Assembly: GCA_009469665.1 (NCBI GenBank)
Contig: SSTB01000029.1
Coordinates: 1 to 12,235, forward strand
Direction of reading: 5' to 3'
DNA from: Azonexaceae bacterium
Lineage (GTDB): Bacteria > Pseudomonadota > Gammaproteobacteria > Burkholderiales > Rhodocyclaceae
Length of the DNA: 12,235 bases
In this document: positions 235 to 7,822 of the stretch, piece after piece
Numbering within the stretch: position 1 is the stretch's first letter
Layout: every line of letters starts with the position of its first letter
Made by a program: the position numbers and the translations under genes
Notes under the pieces: model-generated
Seen by the model: the letters and a program-made list of their open reading frames with translations, nothing else
Told to the model about the DNA's origin: nothing
The model's database searches: none

Positions 235-894
235 TCAGGTGCGGCGCCGACGCGTAGTGAGACCCACGAGAGCCGCGCCAGCGAGAAGGAAGGTCCCGGG
301 TTCGGGAACCTGACTAATCCGGTCAAGGCCGTCGTTGTTGGAAAAAACGGTCCAGACCGTCGATCCCGGAGCCAGGAACTGCGCTTCCTGGAGGCCGTCG
401 CAACAGCCTTCAAAGCCGTAGGCTTCGATGGTGTGGTTTCCGGTGGAAAGGGACACAGTCGCGACCAGCAATTCTCCGCTATTGGCGAAATTGCCACTCC
501 ACCAGAGATCGTCATCAATGAAGGATACGCCGACACCGTCGATGAACAGTGCGCCGCCCCGACCGAAATCCGGCCCGATCCGGAAAGACCAGGTTCCCCC
601 AAGGGTACCGCTGACGCCGAACTGGGCGGAGATGTCGAAGGCGATATCGCCGGCGACGCCGCCACAGCTGCTCTGATTGCTGAGGCCGCTCCAGGCGCCC
701 GGGCTACTGTTGCAGTAACCGCTCCCGGGTAGAGACCCCATGAGCCCTTCGACCGTGGTCTGGTAAGCCGCGGCGCTACCCAGGTACTGACTGGTGGAGG
801 CGCGGGTCTGGAATGAAATGACGCTGGCCTCTGCGGTCAGGCAAGCGGTGGTTAGGGCTGCTGCCAGGGCGACTCTGGGAAATCGGGGACTCAT
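235..894 (-). CDS. PEP-CTERM sorting domain protein with a GCCDG (CCxG-type) motif
   Basis: A 219-residue exported protein. An N-terminal signal peptide (residues 1-23, MSPRFPRVALAAAL..., probable cleavage after AEA) precedes a Gly/Ser-rich, beta-strand-like body. The C-terminus has the canonical PEP-CTERM tripartite tail: VPEPG at 196-200, a hydrophobic helix (TFLLAGAALVGL) and a final RRRR cluster. Such tails are recognised and removed by exosortase (EpsH/XrtA) in bacteria that make exopolysaccharide and flocs. The segment FIDGVGVSFIDDDLWWSGNF...TGNHTIEAYGFEGCCDG (about 117-167) resembles a PA14-like sugar-binding fold, and its GCCDG (163-167) recalls the CCxG group of PEP-CTERM proteins. 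The start at 894 is set by AGGAG six bases upstream. No exosortase gene is in the window, so it is an orphan substrate. The ligand is unknown. Confidence 0.88.
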   Translation of the reverse strand: MSPRFPRVALAAALTTACLTAEASVISFQTRASTSQYLGSAAAYQTTVEGLMGSLPGSGYCNSSPGAWSGLSNQSSCGGVAGDIAFDISAQFGVSGTLGGTWSFRIGPDFGRGGALFIDGVGVSFIDDDLWWSGNFANSGELLVATVSLSTGNHTIEAYGFEGCCDGLQEAQFLAPGSTVWTVFSNNDGLDRISQVPEPGTFLLAGAALVGLTTRRRRT

Positions 895-2872: not shown

Positions 2873-3550
2873 TCAAATCGCCGACGGCGGAGGAAAACTC
2901 TCGTTGGCGCACTCCGACCAAGGCAGGACGGGAATGGGCGAAGGCGCGGGGAACTCACGGTGCAGGAGGACGGCGGGTGCATCCACCCGGGGGCAGTGGC
3001 GCCGTCCGCCCAGGGTGGTGAAGCCGAAACGTCGTTGGTAGTAGCGGACGTGCCGCGGATTGACTTCGATGACCGCATCGGTGGCACCTAGGACGTTGCG
3101 GCCGTAGGCCTGGGCCGTCCGAAACAGTGCGGCGAGCAGTTCGGGGCAGCCGTGGTCCGGATCTGCCGCCAGGCGGGAGATTTCGCATACCCTGCGGCCG
3201 CTGTACCTTAAGGTGGCAAGCTCCTCGCCATAGAGGGTATCGGCGAGAAGACCCCGGGATGAATCCTTCCCCAGGGTCAGAGTGGCCAGGATGTCCTCTC
3301 CCCGCCAGGCCGCGAGGACCAGGCGGGACTCCTCGGACCCTGCCTGGGCCCGATAGCCGCGCCAGGAGTACATGCGGCGGACCAGGGCTGCAGCGGCGCG
3401 CTTCTGATGGGGGGTCGATGCGGTGCGGATGGAAACGCTGCGCAGGGATGAGGGCGGGTCCGTCACCAGCACCAGGCGGGGAGGAGCCGCCAAGTGCACG
3501 CCAAGGGCTTCGCGCGGGGTGTGCAGGGGGATTCCTTTGAAGACGGTCAT
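2873..3550 (-). CDS. FeeM-like N-acyl amino acid synthase / GNAT-fold acyltransferase
   Basis: 225 residues. The core VRRMYSWRGY (58-66), then VCEISRLAADPDHG (121-134) and AVIEVNPRHVRYYQRRFGF (159-177) is the pattern of the FeeM-type N-acyl amino acid synthase branch of the GNAT fold: an E-x-SRLA strand followed by an Asn-Pro-x-H..YY-x-R-x-GF substrate/cofactor segment. FeeM enzymes join acyl chains, often from acyl carrier protein, to amino acids. Whether this one uses acyl-ACP or acyl-CoA cannot be told. No signal peptide or membrane segment is seen, so it is cytoplasmic or membrane-peripheral. The ATG at 3550 overlaps the bactofilin stop by one base (TGATG), implying translational coupling, and is preferred over the longer frame that would run into the bactofilin gene. 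A terminator follows 25 bases after the stop. A generic acetyltransferase is the alternative. Confidence 0.68.
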   Translation of the reverse strand: MTVFKGIPLHTPREALGVHLAAPPRLVLVTDPPSSLRSVSIRTASTPHQKRAAAALVRRMYSWRGYRAQAGSEESRLVLAAWRGEDILATLTLGKDSSRGLLADTLYGEELATLRYSGRRVCEISRLAADPDHGCPELLAALFRTAQAYGRNVLGATDAVIEVNPRHVRYYQRRFGFTTLGGRRHCPRVDAPAVLLHREFPAPSPIPVLPWSECANESFPPPSAI

Positions 3551-4125
3551 CAGCCGGCCACCACCAGGGGGAGAGGCGTCTCGCTGCGGGATTTGGCCGG
3601 GCTCGTTGCCGTGTCGGAGCCCAGGGCGCTGATCTCGCCGCACAGTTCTCCGCCTTCGTCGATGACCAGCTTGCCGTAGCGAATCTTGCCGCTCACCCGG
3701 CCGGTGGAGTGAATAATGAGCTGGGCGCGGGCCGTCAGTTCTCCTTCGAAGCGGCCGTGGATTTCCGCCACGTCGATGCTGACCTTGCCCACGAAGGAGC
3801 CGGCTTCGGCGATGCGCACGACGCGGCTGTCCATAGTGGCTTCGACGCGGCCTTCGACCACCAGGGTGTCACAGTCCAGGATTTCCGCCCCGCGCAGCTT
3901 TACGTCGGGCCCGACGATGAGGCGGGCGCCCATGTCGTTGGCCGCAGGGGGCGCGATGATTTCCGTCACCACAGGGGCGGGCGCGGGTTCCGGGCGGGCC
4001 GCGGCCACCGGAGGGGTGGCGGCCTTGTCGGTGTCGGTCGCGGGGCTGGAGCCGGAAAGGACGGGGCGGACGTCTCGGCGGACGACGGTCTCGTTACGGT
4101 TGAGAAGGCCGGGCTTGCTGAACAT
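3550..4125 (-). CDS. Bactofilin (polymer-forming cytoskeletal protein)
   Basis: 191 residues. Residues 67-167 form the bactofilin core (DUF583/PF04519): short repeating beta-helix turns such as LIVGPDVKLRGAEI, TLVVEGRVEATMDS, VRIAEAGSFVGKVSI, AEIHGRFEGEL, LIIHSTGRVSGKIRYGKLVIDEGGELCGEI. The N-terminal 65 residues are a Pro/Ala-rich disordered arm and the C-terminal 24 residues a Ser/Pro-rich tail, as in other bactofilins. Bactofilins self-assemble without nucleotide into membrane-associated filaments that place cell-wall, polysaccharide or polarity proteins. The ATG at 4125 is set by AAAGGAG five bases upstream; the frame extends further but without conserved sequence. It is first in a two-gene operon with the acyltransferase, and is preceded by a strong sigma-54 promoter and two GlrR-type sites. 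I do not assign a named gene such as bacA. Confidence 0.93.
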   Translation of the reverse strand: MFSKPGLLNRNETVVRRDVRPVLSGSSPATDTDKAATPPVAAARPEPAPAPVVTEIIAPPAANDMGARLIVGPDVKLRGAEILDCDTLVVEGRVEATMDSRVVRIAEAGSFVGKVSIDVAEIHGRFEGELTARAQLIIHSTGRVSGKIRYGKLVIDEGGELCGEISALGSDTATSPAKSRSETPLPLVVAG

Positions 4126-4164: not shown

Positions 4165-4180
4165 TGCGAAAGCCGTGCCA
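4165..4180 (-). promoter_or_regulatory. Sigma-54 (-24/-12) promoter of the bactofilin operon
   Basis: On the minus strand TGGCACG-GCTT-TCGCA fits the sigma-54 consensus TGGCACG-N4-TTGCW with one mismatch; both invariant dinucleotides (GG at -24, GC at -12) and their spacing are correct, and an extra T precedes the -24 element as in strong promoters. Transcription would start near 4154, leaving a leader of about 29 nt with the AAAGGAG ribosome binding site. Such promoters are silent without an enhancer-binding activator, and two matching upstream palindromes exist at 4256-4273 and 4322-4339. Confidence 0.8.
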
Positions 4181-4255
4181 AGTGTGAAATTTCTCACGGA
4201 AACAGGGCCTTGCCCGGAAGTGCCGAAGCAAAGGCGGGGTGTCTGGGGTCGGAGG

Positions 4256-4273
4256 TGTCGCCACTGAGCGACG
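4256..4273 (-). promoter_or_regulatory. Proximal GlrR-type enhancer site (TGTC-N10-GACG)
   Basis: TGTCGCC-ACTG-AGCGACG (plus-strand order) is an interrupted palindrome with arms GTCGC/GCGAC and a 6-base centre. It matches the TGTC-N10-GACA motif reported for GlrR/QseF with one terminal mismatch, and agrees with the second copy at 14 of 18 positions. Its centre is about 111 bp upstream of the predicted bactofilin transcription start, a normal enhancer distance. A run of six T follows, so it could be mistaken for a weak terminator, but no upstream plus-strand gene needs one. Confidence 0.65.
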
Positions 4274-4305
4274 GATTTTTTGTGTTTTGGGATAAAGGCC
4301 GGGAA

Positions 4306-4318
4306 GATCAAGGACTTG
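4306..4318 (+). promoter_or_regulatory. Possible IHF site between the two enhancer sites
   Basis: GATCAAGGACTTG fits the IHF consensus WATCAA-N4-TTR at all defined positions except the first. IHF bending commonly assists sigma-54 activators, but the consensus is loose, the flanking DNA is only moderately AT-rich and the position (between the palindromes rather than between enhancer and promoter) is not the usual one. Confidence 0.25.
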
Positions 4319-4321
4319 GGA

Positions 4322-4339
4322 TGTCGCCGTTAAGCGACA
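4322..4339 (-). promoter_or_regulatory. Distal GlrR-type enhancer site (perfect TGTC-N10-GACA)
   Basis: TGTCGCC-GTTA-AGCGACA is a perfect match to the TGTC-N10-GACA motif, with 6-bp arms TGTCGC/GCGACA around a 6-base centre. It lies 66 bp from the proximal copy, about six helical turns, so both copies face roughly the same side of the DNA. Its centre is about 177 bp upstream of the predicted bactofilin transcription start and 129 bp upstream of the glrK start codon. A further half-site TGTCGC is seen at 4375-4380. Confidence 0.7.
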
Positions 4340-4459: not shown

Positions 4460-5872
4460 ATGACCCGAATTTCCTTTCGCCAGAGCATGTTGGCGGGTTT
4501 TCTCCTCATCGCCCTGCTGCTGGGCGGAGCCGCCGTGCGGAGCTGGATGGTGGTCGAACGCTTCGTGGACCGTAGCCGGGAAGTCAGCGCCGAGGCCGTG
4601 CTCCTTACCGGCCTGGTGCAGGATATTGCCGAGCGGGCGCCGGATCTGGAACGGGCCGCGCGGCAGTATCTGATCCTGGGGGATCCCGTGCTGCTGGCCC
4701 GCTTCGACGCCACTTTGAGCCATGCCCGGGGCGTGGCCGAGAAGATCGACACCTTGCCTGGGAGACCCCTGGGCGGTCTTGCTGCCGAATGGGCCCTTGC
4801 GGCCGGGCACATCGGGGATGTCCTGCGCAACGGAGCCACCCGCGAGGAACTGGGTCCCCTGCTCACCGCCCTGGACGACCTGGGAGCCCGCCTGGCACCG
4901 GCCGGCCGGCGCTGGATCGAGGCGCGTAATGGCGAAGTGCTGGCGGAACTGCAGGAAAACCGGTTGCAACTCACGGGCCAGGTGATCGCGGCCGCCGTCG
5001 GCGCGGTCATCGTCGCCCTCGGCATGGGCTGGTGGCTGGTACGGCCCATCCAGCAACTCGAACGCAACATCCACCGCCTGGGAGAAAGCCGCCTCGACCA
5101 GCCGGTGCAGGTGCGCGGGCCGGCGGACCTGCGCCGTGTCGGTCGCCGTCTGGAGTGGCTGCGCCAGCGTCTGGCGGAACTGGAGGCCGACCGGGAGCGC
5201 AGTCTGCGCCATGTGTCCCACGAACTGAAAACGCCGCTTACGGCACTGCGGGAGGGCATCACCCTGCTGCAGGAGCAGGTGGTGGGGCCTCTTGACCAAG
5301 CCCAGCAGGAAGTGGCGGACATCCTGCGCCACAATGTGGTGCTGCTCCAGGAACAGATCGAAAGCCTGCTGCGCCTCAACGCCGCCTCCTTCGACGCCAG
5401 ACGCCTGAGCTATCGCCCCCAGATCGTGCGGCGCATCCTGGCCCAGGTGGTCAAGGCGCGGGAATTGCAGTTGCAGGCGCGGCGCATCAGCGTGCGGCGT
5501 TCGGCGCCCGCGGTGACCCTGCCCCTGGATGGGGAGAAACTCCAGGTGGTGGTGGACAACCTGTTGTCCAACGCCATCGACTTCAGCCCCGATGGAGGAA
5601 CCATCCGGCTGGAAGCCCTGGTGGACGAGCGGCGCCTGCTGCTCGATTGCATCGACGAGGGCCCCGGCGTTGCGCCGGAGGACGCGGAGAAGATCTTCGA
5701 CCCCTTTGTGCGCGGCATGCGGGAAGCGCCGGCGCCACGCCGGGGGAGCGGTGTTGGATTGTCCATCGTGCGGGAACTGCTGGCCGCCATGGGCGGCCGG
5801 GTCGCTCTGGTCAGCGAAGGTTCCGGGGCCCGGGGCGCCCATTTTCGAGTCGAGATTCCCTATGAACTTTGA
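4460..5872 (+). CDS. glrK: Sensor histidine kinase GlrK/QseE-type
   Basis: A 470-residue inner-membrane histidine kinase. TM1 is at about 10-27, a periplasmic sensor helix bundle at 28-172, TM2 at about 173-194, then a HAMP segment (RPIQQLERNIHRLGESRLDQPVQVRGPADLRRVG). The H-box RHVSHELKTPL has the phosphoacceptor at His254; N-box DNLLSNAIDFSP (366-377), G1 DEGPGV (399-404), F-box IFDPF and G2 GSGVGLSIV (429-437) are intact, so it should be active. TALREG...QVVGPLDQAQQEV is close to E. coli GlrK (ASMREGTELLADQVVGPL). The start at 4460 (MTRISFRQS) puts a basic segment right before TM1; there is no clear Shine-Dalgarno, and an upstream in-frame TTG at 4382 is less likely. It heads glrK-qseG-glrR, overlapping the next gene by 11 bases. 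In enterobacteria this system responds to envelope stress. The inducing signal here is unknown. Confidence 0.92.
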   Translation: MTRISFRQSMLAGFLLIALLLGGAAVRSWMVVERFVDRSREVSAEAVLLTGLVQDIAERAPDLERAARQYLILGDPVLLARFDATLSHARGVAEKIDTLPGRPLGGLAAEWALAAGHIGDVLRNGATREELGPLLTALDDLGARLAPAGRRWIEARNGEVLAELQENRLQLTGQVIAAAVGAVIVALGMGWWLVRPIQQLERNIHRLGESRLDQPVQVRGPADLRRVGRRLEWLRQRLAELEADRERSLRHVSHELKTPLTALREGITLLQEQVVGPLDQAQQEVADILRHNVVLLQEQIESLLRLNAASFDARRLSYRPQIVRRILAQVVKARELQLQARRISVRRSAPAVTLPLDGEKLQVVVDNLLSNAIDFSPDGGTIRLEALVDERRLLLDCIDEGPGVAPEDAEKIFDPFVRGMREAPAPRRGSGVGLSIVRELLAAMGGRVALVSEGSGARGAHFRVEIPYEL

Positions 5873-6443
5873 ATTTGTGCGCGGACCCGTGGTCTGGGCA
5901 GCGCTCCTCCTGGCCCTGGGCGGCTGCGCCGCCTTGTCCGGGCCGCCTACCCCCGAGGCGCCGGTGGCGGCAGGGTCTCCGGCGCCGGAAGAGGGGGGAG
6001 TCGATTCCCTGCTCAGTTACTACCAACTGGTCAATCGCATGACCTCTCAGGAACTGGCGCGGGAGCGCAGCGCCCTCACGAGCCAGGCCGCCACACCGGC
6101 CCATCAGCTCCGCCTGGCTATGGTGCTGGGGATGGGGCGCTCCCCTGCGGACCTCAATCGGGCGGCGAGTCTGCTGGACGGTGTGCTCAAGTCCCAGGCG
6201 GGTCAAGCGTCCCGCCTGCATCCCCTGGCCCGACTTCTTGCCGATCACTACGGCGAGCGGCTCAGGCTGGAGCAGCAAGCGGAACGCGCCGTCCAGCAGG
6301 CCGAGAAAGCCGGCCAGCAGGCTCGGGACAGCCAGCGGCGAGCAGCAGAACTGCAGGAGAAAATCGACGCCTTGGCCGATATCGAACGCTCGCTGCCCTT
6401 GCGTTCCCGGGGCGTCCGGCCTCCCGCGGGGGGCGGACGATGA
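5862..6443 (+). CDS. qseG: QseG-like outer-membrane lipoprotein of the GlrKR system
   Basis: 193 residues with a lipoprotein signal: hydrophobic stretch VVWAALLLALGGC with lipobox L19-G20-G21-C22. The residue after Cys22 is Ala, not the Asp that would keep it in the inner membrane, so an outer-membrane destination is predicted. A Pro-rich linker (28-45) precedes a helical domain: SLLSYYQLVNRMTSQELARER, then a long Gln/Ala/Glu-rich coiled coil (about 131-170) ending with ALADIERSL, a sequence found in QseG/YfhG proteins. In E. coli QseG contacts GlrK (QseE) and is needed for its activity. Gene order glrK-qseG-glrR is the same as in enterobacteria. The ATG at 5862 lies inside the end of glrK (11-base overlap), and the stop overlaps glrR by four bases (ATGA), so translation is coupled. 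Overall sequence is divergent, so homology rests mainly on lipobox, coiled coil and synteny. Confidence 0.8.
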   Translation: MNFEFVRGPVVWAALLLALGGCAALSGPPTPEAPVAAGSPAPEEGGVDSLLSYYQLVNRMTSQELARERSALTSQAATPAHQLRLAMVLGMGRSPADLNRAASLLDGVLKSQAGQASRLHPLARLLADHYGERLRLEQQAERAVQQAEKAGQQARDSQRRAAELQEKIDALADIERSLPLRSRGVRPPAGGGR

Positions 6444-7822
6444 AGCCCGCCACCCAGGCTGCCGGTCACATCCTGGTGGTCGATGACGACGAAGACCTGT
6501 TGCGCCTCCTCTCCCTGCGGCTGGGAGCGCGGGGTTTCCGGGTTTCCACCGCCAAATCAGCCGAGGAAGGGCTTTCCCGCATCGCGGTGGAGCCGCCCGG
6601 GCTGGTGGTCAGCGATGTTCGCCTGCCGGGACGTGACGGCCTGGCACTGTTCGAGGAACTGCGGGTCAGCCATCCCACGCTCCCGGTCATTCTCCTCACC
6701 GCCCACGGAACAATACCCGATGCGGTGGAAGCCACCTCCCGCGGAGTGTTCGGCTATCTCACCAAGCCCTTCGACAGCCAGATTCTCCTGGAAAAGATCG
6801 ATCAGGCCCTGCGGCTCGCCACTGCGGGGGCTCAGGGGCCCGAGGGCGACGCCTGGCGGGCGGGGATCGTCTACCGCAGCAGCCGCATGGCCGAAGTCAT
6901 GCAGGAAGCCCGGGCCGTGGCAGCGTCCGAGGCCAGCGTCCTCATCCGGGGGGACAGCGGTACCGGCAAGGAAGTTCTCGCCCGAGCACTCCACCGGGCA
7001 AGTCCCCGAGCCGGCGCTCCCTTCGTGGCCATCAACTGCGGCGCAATTCCCGAGCAGTTGCTGGAATCCGAACTCTTCGGCCACGTCCGCGGGGCCTTCA
7101 CGGGGGCCGGAACGGCCCGGGTCGGCCTCTTTCAGGCCGCCGACGGGGGAACACTCTTCCTGGACGAAATCGGCGACATGCCTCTCGCCCTCCAGGTAAA
7201 GCTCTTGCGCGTGCTGCAAGAGCGGGCGGTCCGTCCGGTGGGTTCCAACCAGGCGGAACCGGTCAATGTGCGCGTCCTCTCGGCGACCCACCGCGATCTG
7301 GAGGCGGCCCTGGCCGAGGGTAGCTTTCGCGAAGACCTCTACTACCGCCTGGACGTGGTGACTCTCACCCTGCCACGCCTCGACGAGCGGCGGGAGGACA
7401 TTCCGCTTTTGGCTGCCCATTTCGTGCGCCAGATCGCGGCCAAGTACGGCAAGTCCCTGGTGGGCATCGCCCCCGAAGGGCTGTCCATGCTCGCTTCAGC
7501 GCCCTGGCCGGGCAACGTACGCCAGCTCTACAACGTGGTGGAGCAGTGTTGCGCCCTGGCGGCCACGCCGCTCATCCCTTCCGCCCTGGTGCAACGCGCC
7601 CTGCGGTTGCCGGCCGTGGAGCCCCTGTCCTACGCCGACGCCAAGCTCCGCTTCGAACGCGACTATCTGGTGCAACTCCTCAAGCTGACGGACGGCAACG
7701 TGGCCGACGCGGCGCGCATCGCCGACCGCAACCGTACCGAGTTCTATCGCCTGCTGCAAAGGCACGACCTGGCGCCGGCCATGTTCCGGGCCGACGGCGC
7801 GGAAGGCGCAGGAGGCAGTTGA
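6440..7822 (+). CDS. glrR: Sigma-54 response regulator GlrR/QseF-type
   Basis: A 460-residue NtrC-family activator. The receiver domain (about 10-125) has the acidic pocket DDDED (15-19), phosphoacceptor Asp59 (VVSDVRLPGRDG), conserved T87 and K109. The AAA+ domain (about 143-370) has Walker A GDSGTGKE (171-178), the sigma-54 contact loop GAFTGA (218-223), Walker B GGTLFLDEIG (236-245) and the arginine-finger region REDLYYRLDV (297-306). The C-terminal Fis-type helix-turn-helix (418-442, GNVADAARIADRNRTEFYRLLQRH) is nearly the recognition region of E. coli GlrR (GRNRTEFYKLL), which suggests conserved DNA specificity. This is why the TGTC-N10-GACA-like sites at 4256-4273 and 4322-4339 are attributed to it. 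The start ATG at 6440 overlaps the qseG stop. All motifs needed to activate sigma-54 polymerase are intact. Confidence 0.93.
   Translation: MKPATQAAGHILVVDDDEDLLRLLSLRLGARGFRVSTAKSAEEGLSRIAVEPPGLVVSDVRLPGRDGLALFEELRVSHPTLPVILLTAHGTIPDAVEATSRGVFGYLTKPFDSQILLEKIDQALRLATAGAQGPEGDAWRAGIVYRSSRMAEVMQEARAVAASEASVLIRGDSGTGKEVLARALHRASPRAGAPFVAINCGAIPEQLLESELFGHVRGAFTGAGTARVGLFQAADGGTLFLDEIGDMPLALQVKLLRVLQERAVRPVGSNQAEPVNVRVLSATHRDLEAALAEGSFREDLYYRLDVVTLTLPRLDERREDIPLLAAHFVRQIAAKYGKSLVGIAPEGLSMLASAPWPGNVRQLYNVVEQCCALAATPLIPSALVQRALRLPAVEPLSYADAKLRFERDYLVQLLKLTDGNVADAARIADRNRTEFYRLLQRHDLAPAMFRADGAEGAGGS

What the first reader, a model, noticed from the sequence alone, without database searches (positions are those of the whole stretch)
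4165..4339. GlrR-type enhancer pair facing a sigma-54 promoter of a bactofilin operon
Two palindromes (TGTC-N10-GACG and TGTC-N10-GACA, 14 of 18 bases identical, 66 bp apart) lie about 111 and 177 bp upstream of the transcription start set by a near-perfect -24/-12 element that reads into the bactofilin gene. The response regulator encoded 2 kb away has an intact GAFTGA loop and a DNA-recognition helix almost identical to GlrR, whose known motif in enterobacteria is TGTC-N10-GACA (recalled from the glmY/glmZ promoter work, not checked here). In enterobacteria the known targets are small RNAs for glucosamine-6-phosphate control and rpoE; control of a cytoskeletal bactofilin plus an acyltransferase would be a new output of this envelope-stress system.
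Basis: partly seen in the sequence, partly recalled or inferred. Interest (0 to 1): 0.8.

Follow-up and report, generated by a model that had tools for sequence, protein, structure and literature searches.

The report
GlrR enhancer pair driving bactofilin operon
Two matching DNA sites next to a stress-sensing gene set very probably let its regulator, GlrR, switch on a gene for a cell-shape filament protein, an output I found no report of, and the same layout recurs in related bacteria.

Summary
The palindromes at 4256-4273 and 4322-4339 face a -24/-12 element at 4180-4165 (10 of 11 scored positions) that reads into a bactofilin/FeeM-type acyltransferase operon. They fit the published QseF (GlrR) consensus TGTC-N10-GACA, save one end base.

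In 249 genomes of one family (that of Dechloromonas denitrificans), paired sites occur in 109 and track GlrR: 100 have both, 9 the pair only, 20 GlrR only, 120 neither. Of 55 units drawn by the pair alone, 23 precede bactofilin; others precede glycine-zipper lipoproteins, BON proteins, an MlaC and unknowns.

The pair stays with bactofilin away from glrK and was not found upstream of glrK where bactofilin is not there (one exception). Distances to the promoter step by about 11 bp. E. coli glmY has a similar layout. In four genomes no glrK or receiver domain was found near bactofilin, but the GlrR AAA+-HTH core sits beside it.

GlrR control of bactofilin is strongly supported by comparison. Binding and activation remain untested.

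The parts
4322..4339 (.). Promoter-distal GlrR-type palindrome TGTCGCCGTTAAGCGACA, centre near -176 from the inferred start
   Evidence: matches the printed consensus TGTCN10GACA (PMC8745638 passage)
4256..4273 (.). Promoter-proximal GlrR-type palindrome TGTCGCCACTGAGCGACG, centre near -110; last base departs from the consensus
   Evidence: partner 66 bp away, spacing 64-69 in 82 units
4306..4318 (+). IHF-like motif GATCAAGGACTTG (1 mismatch to WATCAANNNNTTR, consensus recalled) between the palindromes
   Evidence: same orientation and nearly the same place as AATCAATGAGTTA in the E. coli glmY spacer (position 2 versus 3)
4200..4212 (+). Second IHF-like motif AAACAGGGCCTTG (2 mismatches), 32 bp before the -24 element
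   Evidence: this position and strand is the commonest in the gaps of 82 units
4165..4180 (-). Sigma-54 promoter element TGGCACGGCTTTCGCA; inferred start about 4154
   Evidence: the TCGC variant recurs in close relatives
3550..4125 (-). Bactofilin gene (191 aa), first gene of the operon
   Evidence: Pfam PF04519, 65.5 bits against a cut-off of 27.9
2873..3550 (-). FeeM-type (N-acyl amino acid synthase-like) acyltransferase gene, overlapping the end of bactofilin; probable second gene
   Evidence: Pfam PF21926, 151.5 bits against 27
4460..5872 (+). glrK/qseE-type sensor kinase, divergent from bactofilin
   Evidence: HAMP, HisKA and HATPase_c; 135 of 450 aligned positions (30%) identical to E. 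coli GlrK
5862..6443 (+). QseG-like lipoprotein (lipobox LGGC by eye), between kinase and regulator
   Evidence: gene order; no Pfam or NCBIfam match; weak BLAST to E. coli QseG, best E 0.064, with LADIERSL against LTDIERQL in a second segment
6440..7822 (+). glrR/qseF-type response regulator (receiver, AAA+ with GAFTGA, HTH)
   Evidence: best NCBIfam model is GlrR, 593.7 bits, below the 763 cut-off; 56% identity to E. coli GlrR

Best explanation
The 4165-4339 segment is the control region of a sigma-54 promoter for the bactofilin/acyltransferase operon, activated by the GlrR encoded 2 kb away. The kinase, helped by the QseG-like lipoprotein, phosphorylates GlrR in response to an envelope signal (inferred from enterobacteria). 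GlrR dimers bind both palindromes; IHF or a similar protein bends the DNA between the palindromes and before the promoter; the GlrR AAA+ ring reaches the waiting sigma-54 polymerase and opens the promoter. More bactofilin, and probably the acyltransferase, is made. Shown by sequence comparison: the sites, the promoter, their conservation, their phasing, their tie to glrR and to bactofilin. Inferred: binding, bending, activation, and the signal.
For: Pairs in 109 of 249 family genomes against 7 of 249 with the pattern read backwards (7 is my count of rows). With GlrR (E <= 1e-150): 100 both, 9 pair only, 20 GlrR only, 120 neither, Fisher p about 1e-37, not corrected for kinship. 61 of 76 pairs have a -24/-12 element of at least 8 of 11 within 150 bp, against 7.3% of random places in the same loci. 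Of 55 pair+promoter units drawn by the pair alone, 23 precede bactofilin; of all 82 units, 45, but that sample is partly drawn by bactofilin or GlrR. Of 69 loci with glrK, 38 have divergent bactofilin and a pair, 27 neither upstream of glrK (one of these, L208, has no upstream sequence), 1 the pair only (no bactofilin detected) and 3 bactofilin only. Pairs stay with bactofilin on other contigs or far from glrR (L156, L158, L161, L164, L166) and across an inserted transposase-like gene (L125). Bactofilin genes picked by protein match: 23 of 40 in GlrR genomes have pair+sigma-54, against 1 of 20 in genomes below the GlrR cut-off. That one (G183), and four others with pairs but no scored promoter, carry a GlrR-like gene beside bactofilin. 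Gap to promoter clusters at 51-52, 62-67, 73-78, 85-88 and 94-97 bp (R 0.79 at 11.1 bp; 0 of 3000 random sets as good). E. coli glmY: two sites 63 bp apart, IHF consensus between, sigma-54 element.
Against: No binding, expression or start-site data. No whole genome is held for the window, so other targets of its GlrR are unknown. 20 of 120 GlrR genomes lack the strict pair. I fetched the glrR region of 11 of those 20: three show a relaxed pair at bactofilin (L203, L204, L207), three have bactofilin with one site only (L211-L213), three have no bactofilin there (L205, L206, L209), one is cut by the contig end (L208) and one gave no glrK match (L210). 17 of 40 bactofilin genes in GlrR genomes lack pair+sigma-54, though five of these show two full sites. 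15 of 76 pairs have no scored promoter, and six of those 15 lie before bactofilin (L117, L126-L129, L133). The window's IHF-like motifs are 1 and 2 mismatches off, and the spacer one is not at the usual place. No count is corrected for kinship.
Confidence: 0.88

Rival explanations
1. The palindromes serve autoregulation of the divergent glrK-qseG-glrR operon; their nearness to bactofilin is incidental.
For: They lie about 120-200 bp upstream of the glrK start, and bEBP operons are often autoregulated (recalled). In 5 of 69 loci (L002, L005, L144, L198, L200) an element scoring 9 or more points towards glrK within 600 bp.
Against: No element scoring 9 or more faces glrK in the window. Of 28 loci without detected bactofilin divergent from glrK, 27 show no pair in the 600 bp upstream of glrK (one of them cut by the contig end), while 38 of 41 with bactofilin have one. 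Pairs sit at bactofilin genes far from glrK.
Confidence: 0.05
2. Another sigma-54 activator with a similar site (for example a PrsR-type regulator of PEP-CTERM genes, or a further NtrC-family protein) uses the pair.
For: Other pairs in the family read TGTCCGGA..TCCGGACA, perhaps another activator's sites (inference; label recalled). The window encodes a PEP-CTERM protein at 235-894. 9 of 109 pair genomes lack GlrR at the cut-off; for five of these nine no GlrR-type gene was shown beside bactofilin.
Against: The pair tracks GlrR across 249 genomes, resembles the E. coli glmY sites and fits the printed QseF consensus. In genomes where no glrK or receiver domain was found near bactofilin, the GlrR AAA+-HTH core sits beside it.
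Confidence: 0.05
3. GlrR binds as a repressor, or acts on a promoter of another class; the -24/-12 match is accidental.
For: 15 of 76 pairs have no scored promoter, and 17 of 40 separately picked bactofilin genes lack the combination.
Against: 61 of 76 pairs have an element of at least 8 of 11 within 150 bp against 7.3% of random places, with distances stepped by about a helical turn, as expected for activation by looping.
Confidence: 0.02

Closest known systems
glmY sigma-54 promoter with QseF/GlrR and IHF sites (E. coli K-12, Proteus mirabilis)
   Same: TGTC-N10-GACA sites, a pair 63 bp apart with an IHF consensus between them, and a -24/-12 element; IHF assists QseF (PMC6075780 passages); P. 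mirabilis has three QseF and two IHF putative sites (PMC8745638 passages).
   Different: Target is a bactofilin operon, not a small RNA; E. coli has a third site at -230; the promoter is divergent from glrK here, while glmY lies directly upstream of glrK on the same strand.
QseE-QseG-QseF (GlrK-YfhG-GlrR) three-gene system
   Same: Same gene order, intact GAFTGA, nearly identical recognition helix. The cluster is reported in Betaproteobacteria (PMC12691602 passages).
   Different: Kinase only 30% identical to E. coli GlrK; lipoprotein barely alignable; regulator below the NCBIfam GlrR cut-off.
Bactofilins (PF04519; BacA, CcmA)
   Same: Bactofilin domain well above cut-off.
   Different: I found no paper tying a bactofilin to GlrR, QseF or sigma-54 control.

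Membership tests
GlrR/QseF-dependent sigma-54 promoter | TGTC-N10-GACA upstream activating sites | tested here: met
   the proximal site ends GACG, not GACA; consensus seen in PMC8745638 (passage)
GlrR/QseF-dependent sigma-54 promoter | -24/-12 element downstream of the sites | tested here: met
   10 of 11 positions; conserved in relatives
GlrR/QseF-dependent sigma-54 promoter | IHF site(s) | tested here: inconclusive
   1 and 2 mismatches in the window; positional clustering across the units is strong
GlrR/QseF-dependent sigma-54 promoter | Binding by GlrR and loss of expression without glrR or rpoN | not testable with these tools
   needs gel shift, footprint and mutants
QseEGF (GlrK-YfhG-GlrR) system | Kinase, lipoprotein and bEBP response regulator in this order | tested here: met
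   that the middle protein is a lipoprotein rests on its lipobox, by eye
QseEGF (GlrK-YfhG-GlrR) system | QseG-like lipoprotein | tested here: inconclusive
   E 0.064 to E. coli QseG; lipobox LGGC by eye; LADIERSLPLR has L, E, R, R at the spacing of Salmonella QseG L209, E213, R214, R219 (residues from a figure legend; comparison mine)
NCBIfam GlrR equivalog NF011695 | Score above the curated cut-off | tested here: not met
   593.7 bits against 763, though the best of 107 matching models; hence called GlrR-type, not a formal equivalog
Bactofilin PF04519 | Score above gathering cut-off | tested here: met
   65.5 against 27.9
FeeM PF21926 | Score above gathering cut-off | tested here: met
   151.5 against 27

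The most novel reading that the evidence does not exclude
Bactofilin is a core, possibly ancestral output of GlrR in the Dechloromonas family of Betaproteobacteria: the system senses envelope trouble and responds by building the bactofilin scaffold and small envelope proteins (glycine-zipper lipoproteins, BON, MlaC) from a phased enhancer (site - IHF - site - IHF - promoter) shared with the enterobacterial glmY promoter. In one set of genomes the system is reduced to a GlrR without receiver, beside bactofilin, with no kinase nearby.
Probability: 0.65. Interest if true: 0.75.

Novelty: new member of a known kind. Interest (0 to 1): 0.62.

Why it matters
In the passages read, GlrR/QseF is described through glmY and rpoE in enterobacteria. 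A conserved GlrR enhancer on bactofilin would link this three-part envelope sensor to a cytoskeletal scaffold in a large environmental family, give a concrete regulator for a bactofilin, and offer many natural promoters with stepped spacing for studying how an enhancer loops to sigma-54 polymerase. It also supplies a candidate target set (bactofilin, glycine-zipper lipoprotein, BON, MlaC) for testing in isolates such as Dechloromonas.

Tried and rejected
Autoregulation of glrK as the main role was rejected. A small RNA in the window, as in glmY, was looked for: Rfam at gathering scores finds only a tRNA, and the promoter reads directly into bactofilin. A CRP-like palindrome TGTGAAATTTCTCACG near 4182-4197 is not seen at that place in the relatives printed. 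Extension to enterobacteria: 15 of 198 genomes have weak bactofilin-like matches (25-35% identity), and 0 of those 15 loci hold TGTC-N10-GACA. A search of 21 genomes from outside the family search that have glrR loci found pairs in 10 (wider spacer); the Chitinimonas bactofilin has two sites but no scored promoter. In the order, 109 of 399 genomes have pairs, against 23 by my count of the backwards-pattern rows; those targets were not worked through. Literature searches for bactofilin with GlrR, sigma 54, RpoN, envelope stress or Rhodocyclaceae, for CcmA with QseF, and a six-term search gave no paper on this link. Of the papers listed there I read passages of PMC9218911 and PMC5590869 only; the others I saw as listings. 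PMC3162934 has no occurrence of 'bactofilin' in its main text. A protein search with bactofilin was not used further.

Rows dropped: of the pair places listed (itself truncated) I fetched 60 regions; I left out places that looked to me like chance matches or like TGTCCGGA-type sites, some others, and those not listed. Among those 60 regions the 76-pair count and the 61 with promoter are (with the window, L001 and L003). For the 82-unit set only full-core sites with an element of at least 9 of 11 were kept.

Full report
What is there. The window holds, on the minus strand, a bactofilin gene (3550-4125) followed by an overlapping FeeM-type acyltransferase gene (2873-3550). Divergent from them is a three-gene set: sensor kinase (4460-5872), small lipoprotein (5862-6443) and sigma-54 response regulator (6440-7822). 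Between them lie two palindromes, 4256-4273 and 4322-4339, and a -24/-12 element at 4180-4165 that reads into bactofilin. Within the window the pair is far beyond chance (0 of 200 shuffles).

Identity of the regulator. The best NCBIfam model is GlrR at 593.7 bits, below its cut-off of 763. It is 56% identical to E. coli GlrR, with GAFTGA and a last helix RNRTEFYRLL against RNRTEFYKLL. The kinase is 30% identical to E. coli GlrK. The lipoprotein aligns weakly to QseG (E 0.064) but sits in the right place and keeps LADIERSLPLR, whose L, E, R, R have the spacing of QseG residues mutated in the mBio 2025 work (figure legend seen; the comparison is mine). I call the system GlrR-type.

Conservation. 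Three of the closest regulator relatives in the first scan (L001 Dechloromonas, L002 a MAG, L003 Propionivibrio) have the same divergent layout, two palindromes 65-66 bp apart (one end base of L002's distal site departs) and a promoter 73-75 bp further on. A search of 249 genomes of the Dechloromonas family for TGTCN10GACR-N45-51-TGTCN10GACR found pairs in 109; the same pattern read backwards hit 7 by my count of rows. GlrR at E <= 1e-150 is in 120 of the 249. Together: 100 with both, 9 with pair only, 20 with GlrR only, 120 with neither. The 9 are not all clean exceptions: G070, G111, G118 and G153 have a GlrR-like gene beside bactofilin that fell under the cut-off. The 20 are not all clean either: relaxed pairs turned up at bactofilin in G046, G150 and G103 (L203, L204, L207) and in G045 and G078 (L254, L258).

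Architecture. I took 60 regions around listed pairs. Of 76 pairs in these plus the window, L001 and L003, 61 have a -24/-12 element of at least 8 of 11 within 150 bp, against 7.3% of 3800 random places in the same loci; 59 have at least 9, against 3.0%. In a later set of 82 distinct units (full core, element at least 9), pair spacing is 64-69 bp and the gap from palindrome to element clusters at 51-52, 62-67, 73-78, 85-88 and 94-97 bp, stepped by about 11 bp (R 0.79; 0 of 3000 random sets as good). An IHF-like motif (at most 2 mismatches) lies at spacer position 15 in 26 and at 16 in 19 of the 82, and another 31, 32 and 33 bp before the element in 17, 29 and 6. In the 61-unit set the counts at positions 15 and 16 were 23 and 19, and 200 rounds of shuffled spacers never gave more than 4 at one place. 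For the gap only presence was set against shuffles: 37 of 82 with at most 1 mismatch against a mean of 5.9 (largest 12, in 30 rounds). The window has both kinds, with 1 and 2 mismatches, but its spacer motif lies near the distal palindrome on the other strand, which is where E. coli glmY has its perfect match. Related sequences are not independent, so these figures are descriptive.

Which gene the pair serves. Of 69 loci with a clear glrK, 38 have bactofilin divergent from glrK and a pair, 27 have neither (in one of them, L208, the upstream stretch is off the contig), 1 (L121) has the pair with no bactofilin detected and only a short open frame in its place, and 3 (L211-L213) have bactofilin without a pair, each keeping one site. 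Many of these loci were fetched because they hold a pair, so the telling part is the 27: where bactofilin was not found beside glrK, no pair was found in the 600 bp upstream of glrK. Bactofilin on another contig or far from glrR still has pair and promoter in L156, L158, L161, L164 and L166, and in L125 a gene that I read as a transposase separates glrK from a pair that stays with bactofilin. Further bactofilin genes picked by protein match have pair+promoter in 23 of 40 from GlrR-bearing genomes (a number of these lie close to glrR, and one is Chitinimonas from outside the family) and in 1 of 20 from genomes below the GlrR cut-off. That one (G183) also has a GlrR-like gene next to it. Of the other 19, four with GlrR-like neighbours show two full-core sites, and the listing shows no more than one for each of the remaining 15. 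Two of those 15 genomes (G059, G166) hold partial GlrR-like matches of 63-65% identity elsewhere.

Targets. Of 55 units drawn by the pair alone (L117-L176), 23 precede bactofilin; of all 82, 45. First genes of other units include, among ten scanned with Pfam, three BON proteins, four with glycine-zipper matches (one, L139, below the cut-offs), one MlaC and two without a match. Many of these lie just downstream of glrR. Duganella and Chitinimonas have a pair before a BON-like gene next to glrR (BON by my reading, not scanned). These suit an envelope-related regulon.

Reduced systems. In G070, G153, G118 and G183 no glrK or QseG-like match was found in about 8 kb, and the GlrR-like protein matches only from about residue 105-136 onward, that is, with no receiver match; it sits divergent from bactofilin, and a full-core pair is present in three of the four. 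I read the open frame only for G070 (380 aa from its first possible start); those of G118 and G183 are longer (548 and 488 aa) and may carry another N-terminal part. G111 has a full-length GlrR-like match without a glrK match in 6.5 kb. What remains in these loci is the part that would bind and activate the bactofilin promoter.

Mechanism. Best reading: phosphorylated GlrR binds the two sites, IHF-like bending brings it to sigma-54 polymerase, and the bactofilin operon is induced. The sites, their association and phasing are shown; binding, bending and the signal are inferred. In E. coli, QseF acts on glmY and rpoE, with IHF's help at glmY (PMC6075780, passages), and QseEGF clusters occur in Betaproteobacteria (PMC12691602, passages).

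Novelty. The promoter kind is known. I found no paper joining bactofilin and GlrR, QseF or sigma-54 control (searches, in open-licence PMC papers only). Rated a new member of a known kind, with an unexpected target and a clear test.

Noticed in passing
L303, L304, L305, L306 (bactofilin neighbourhoods of G070, G153, G118, G183): GlrR-like activator without a receiver match, divergent from bactofilin; no glrK or QseG-like match within about 8 kb; full-core pair in three of four.
   Followed up: partly
L232, L234, L241, L244, L245, upstream of bactofilin: Genomes below the GlrR cut-off have a single palindrome (such as TGTCTGCCATTGACGACA) close before what looks to me like a non-sigma-54 promoter; perhaps another regulator or a relic.
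   Followed up: partly
family search results (for example G013, G041, G124, G231): A second class of pairs, roughly TGTCCGGA..TCCGGACA, with similar spacing; possibly sites of a different activator such as PrsR (label recalled).
   Followed up: no
window 4182-4197: CRP-like palindrome TGTGAAATTTCTCACG just upstream of the -24 element (CRP label recalled); not seen in the relatives printed.
   Followed up: yes
window 235-894: Minus-strand PEP-CTERM protein gene (PF07589).
   Followed up: no
window 4165-4180 and relatives: The -12 half reads TCGC instead of TTGC in the window and in nearly all bactofilin promoters printed (L123 reads CCGC), a shared variant.
   Followed up: partly
L134, L135, L137: Pair and promoter before genes of unknown function: His-rich, secreted-looking proteins in L134 and L135, a 444-aa protein in L137; L135 and L137 have no Pfam match.
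   Followed up: partly
L165: Pair and promoter (gap 86) before an MlaC gene (PF05494), suggesting lipid-transport genes in some GlrR regulons.
   Followed up: partly
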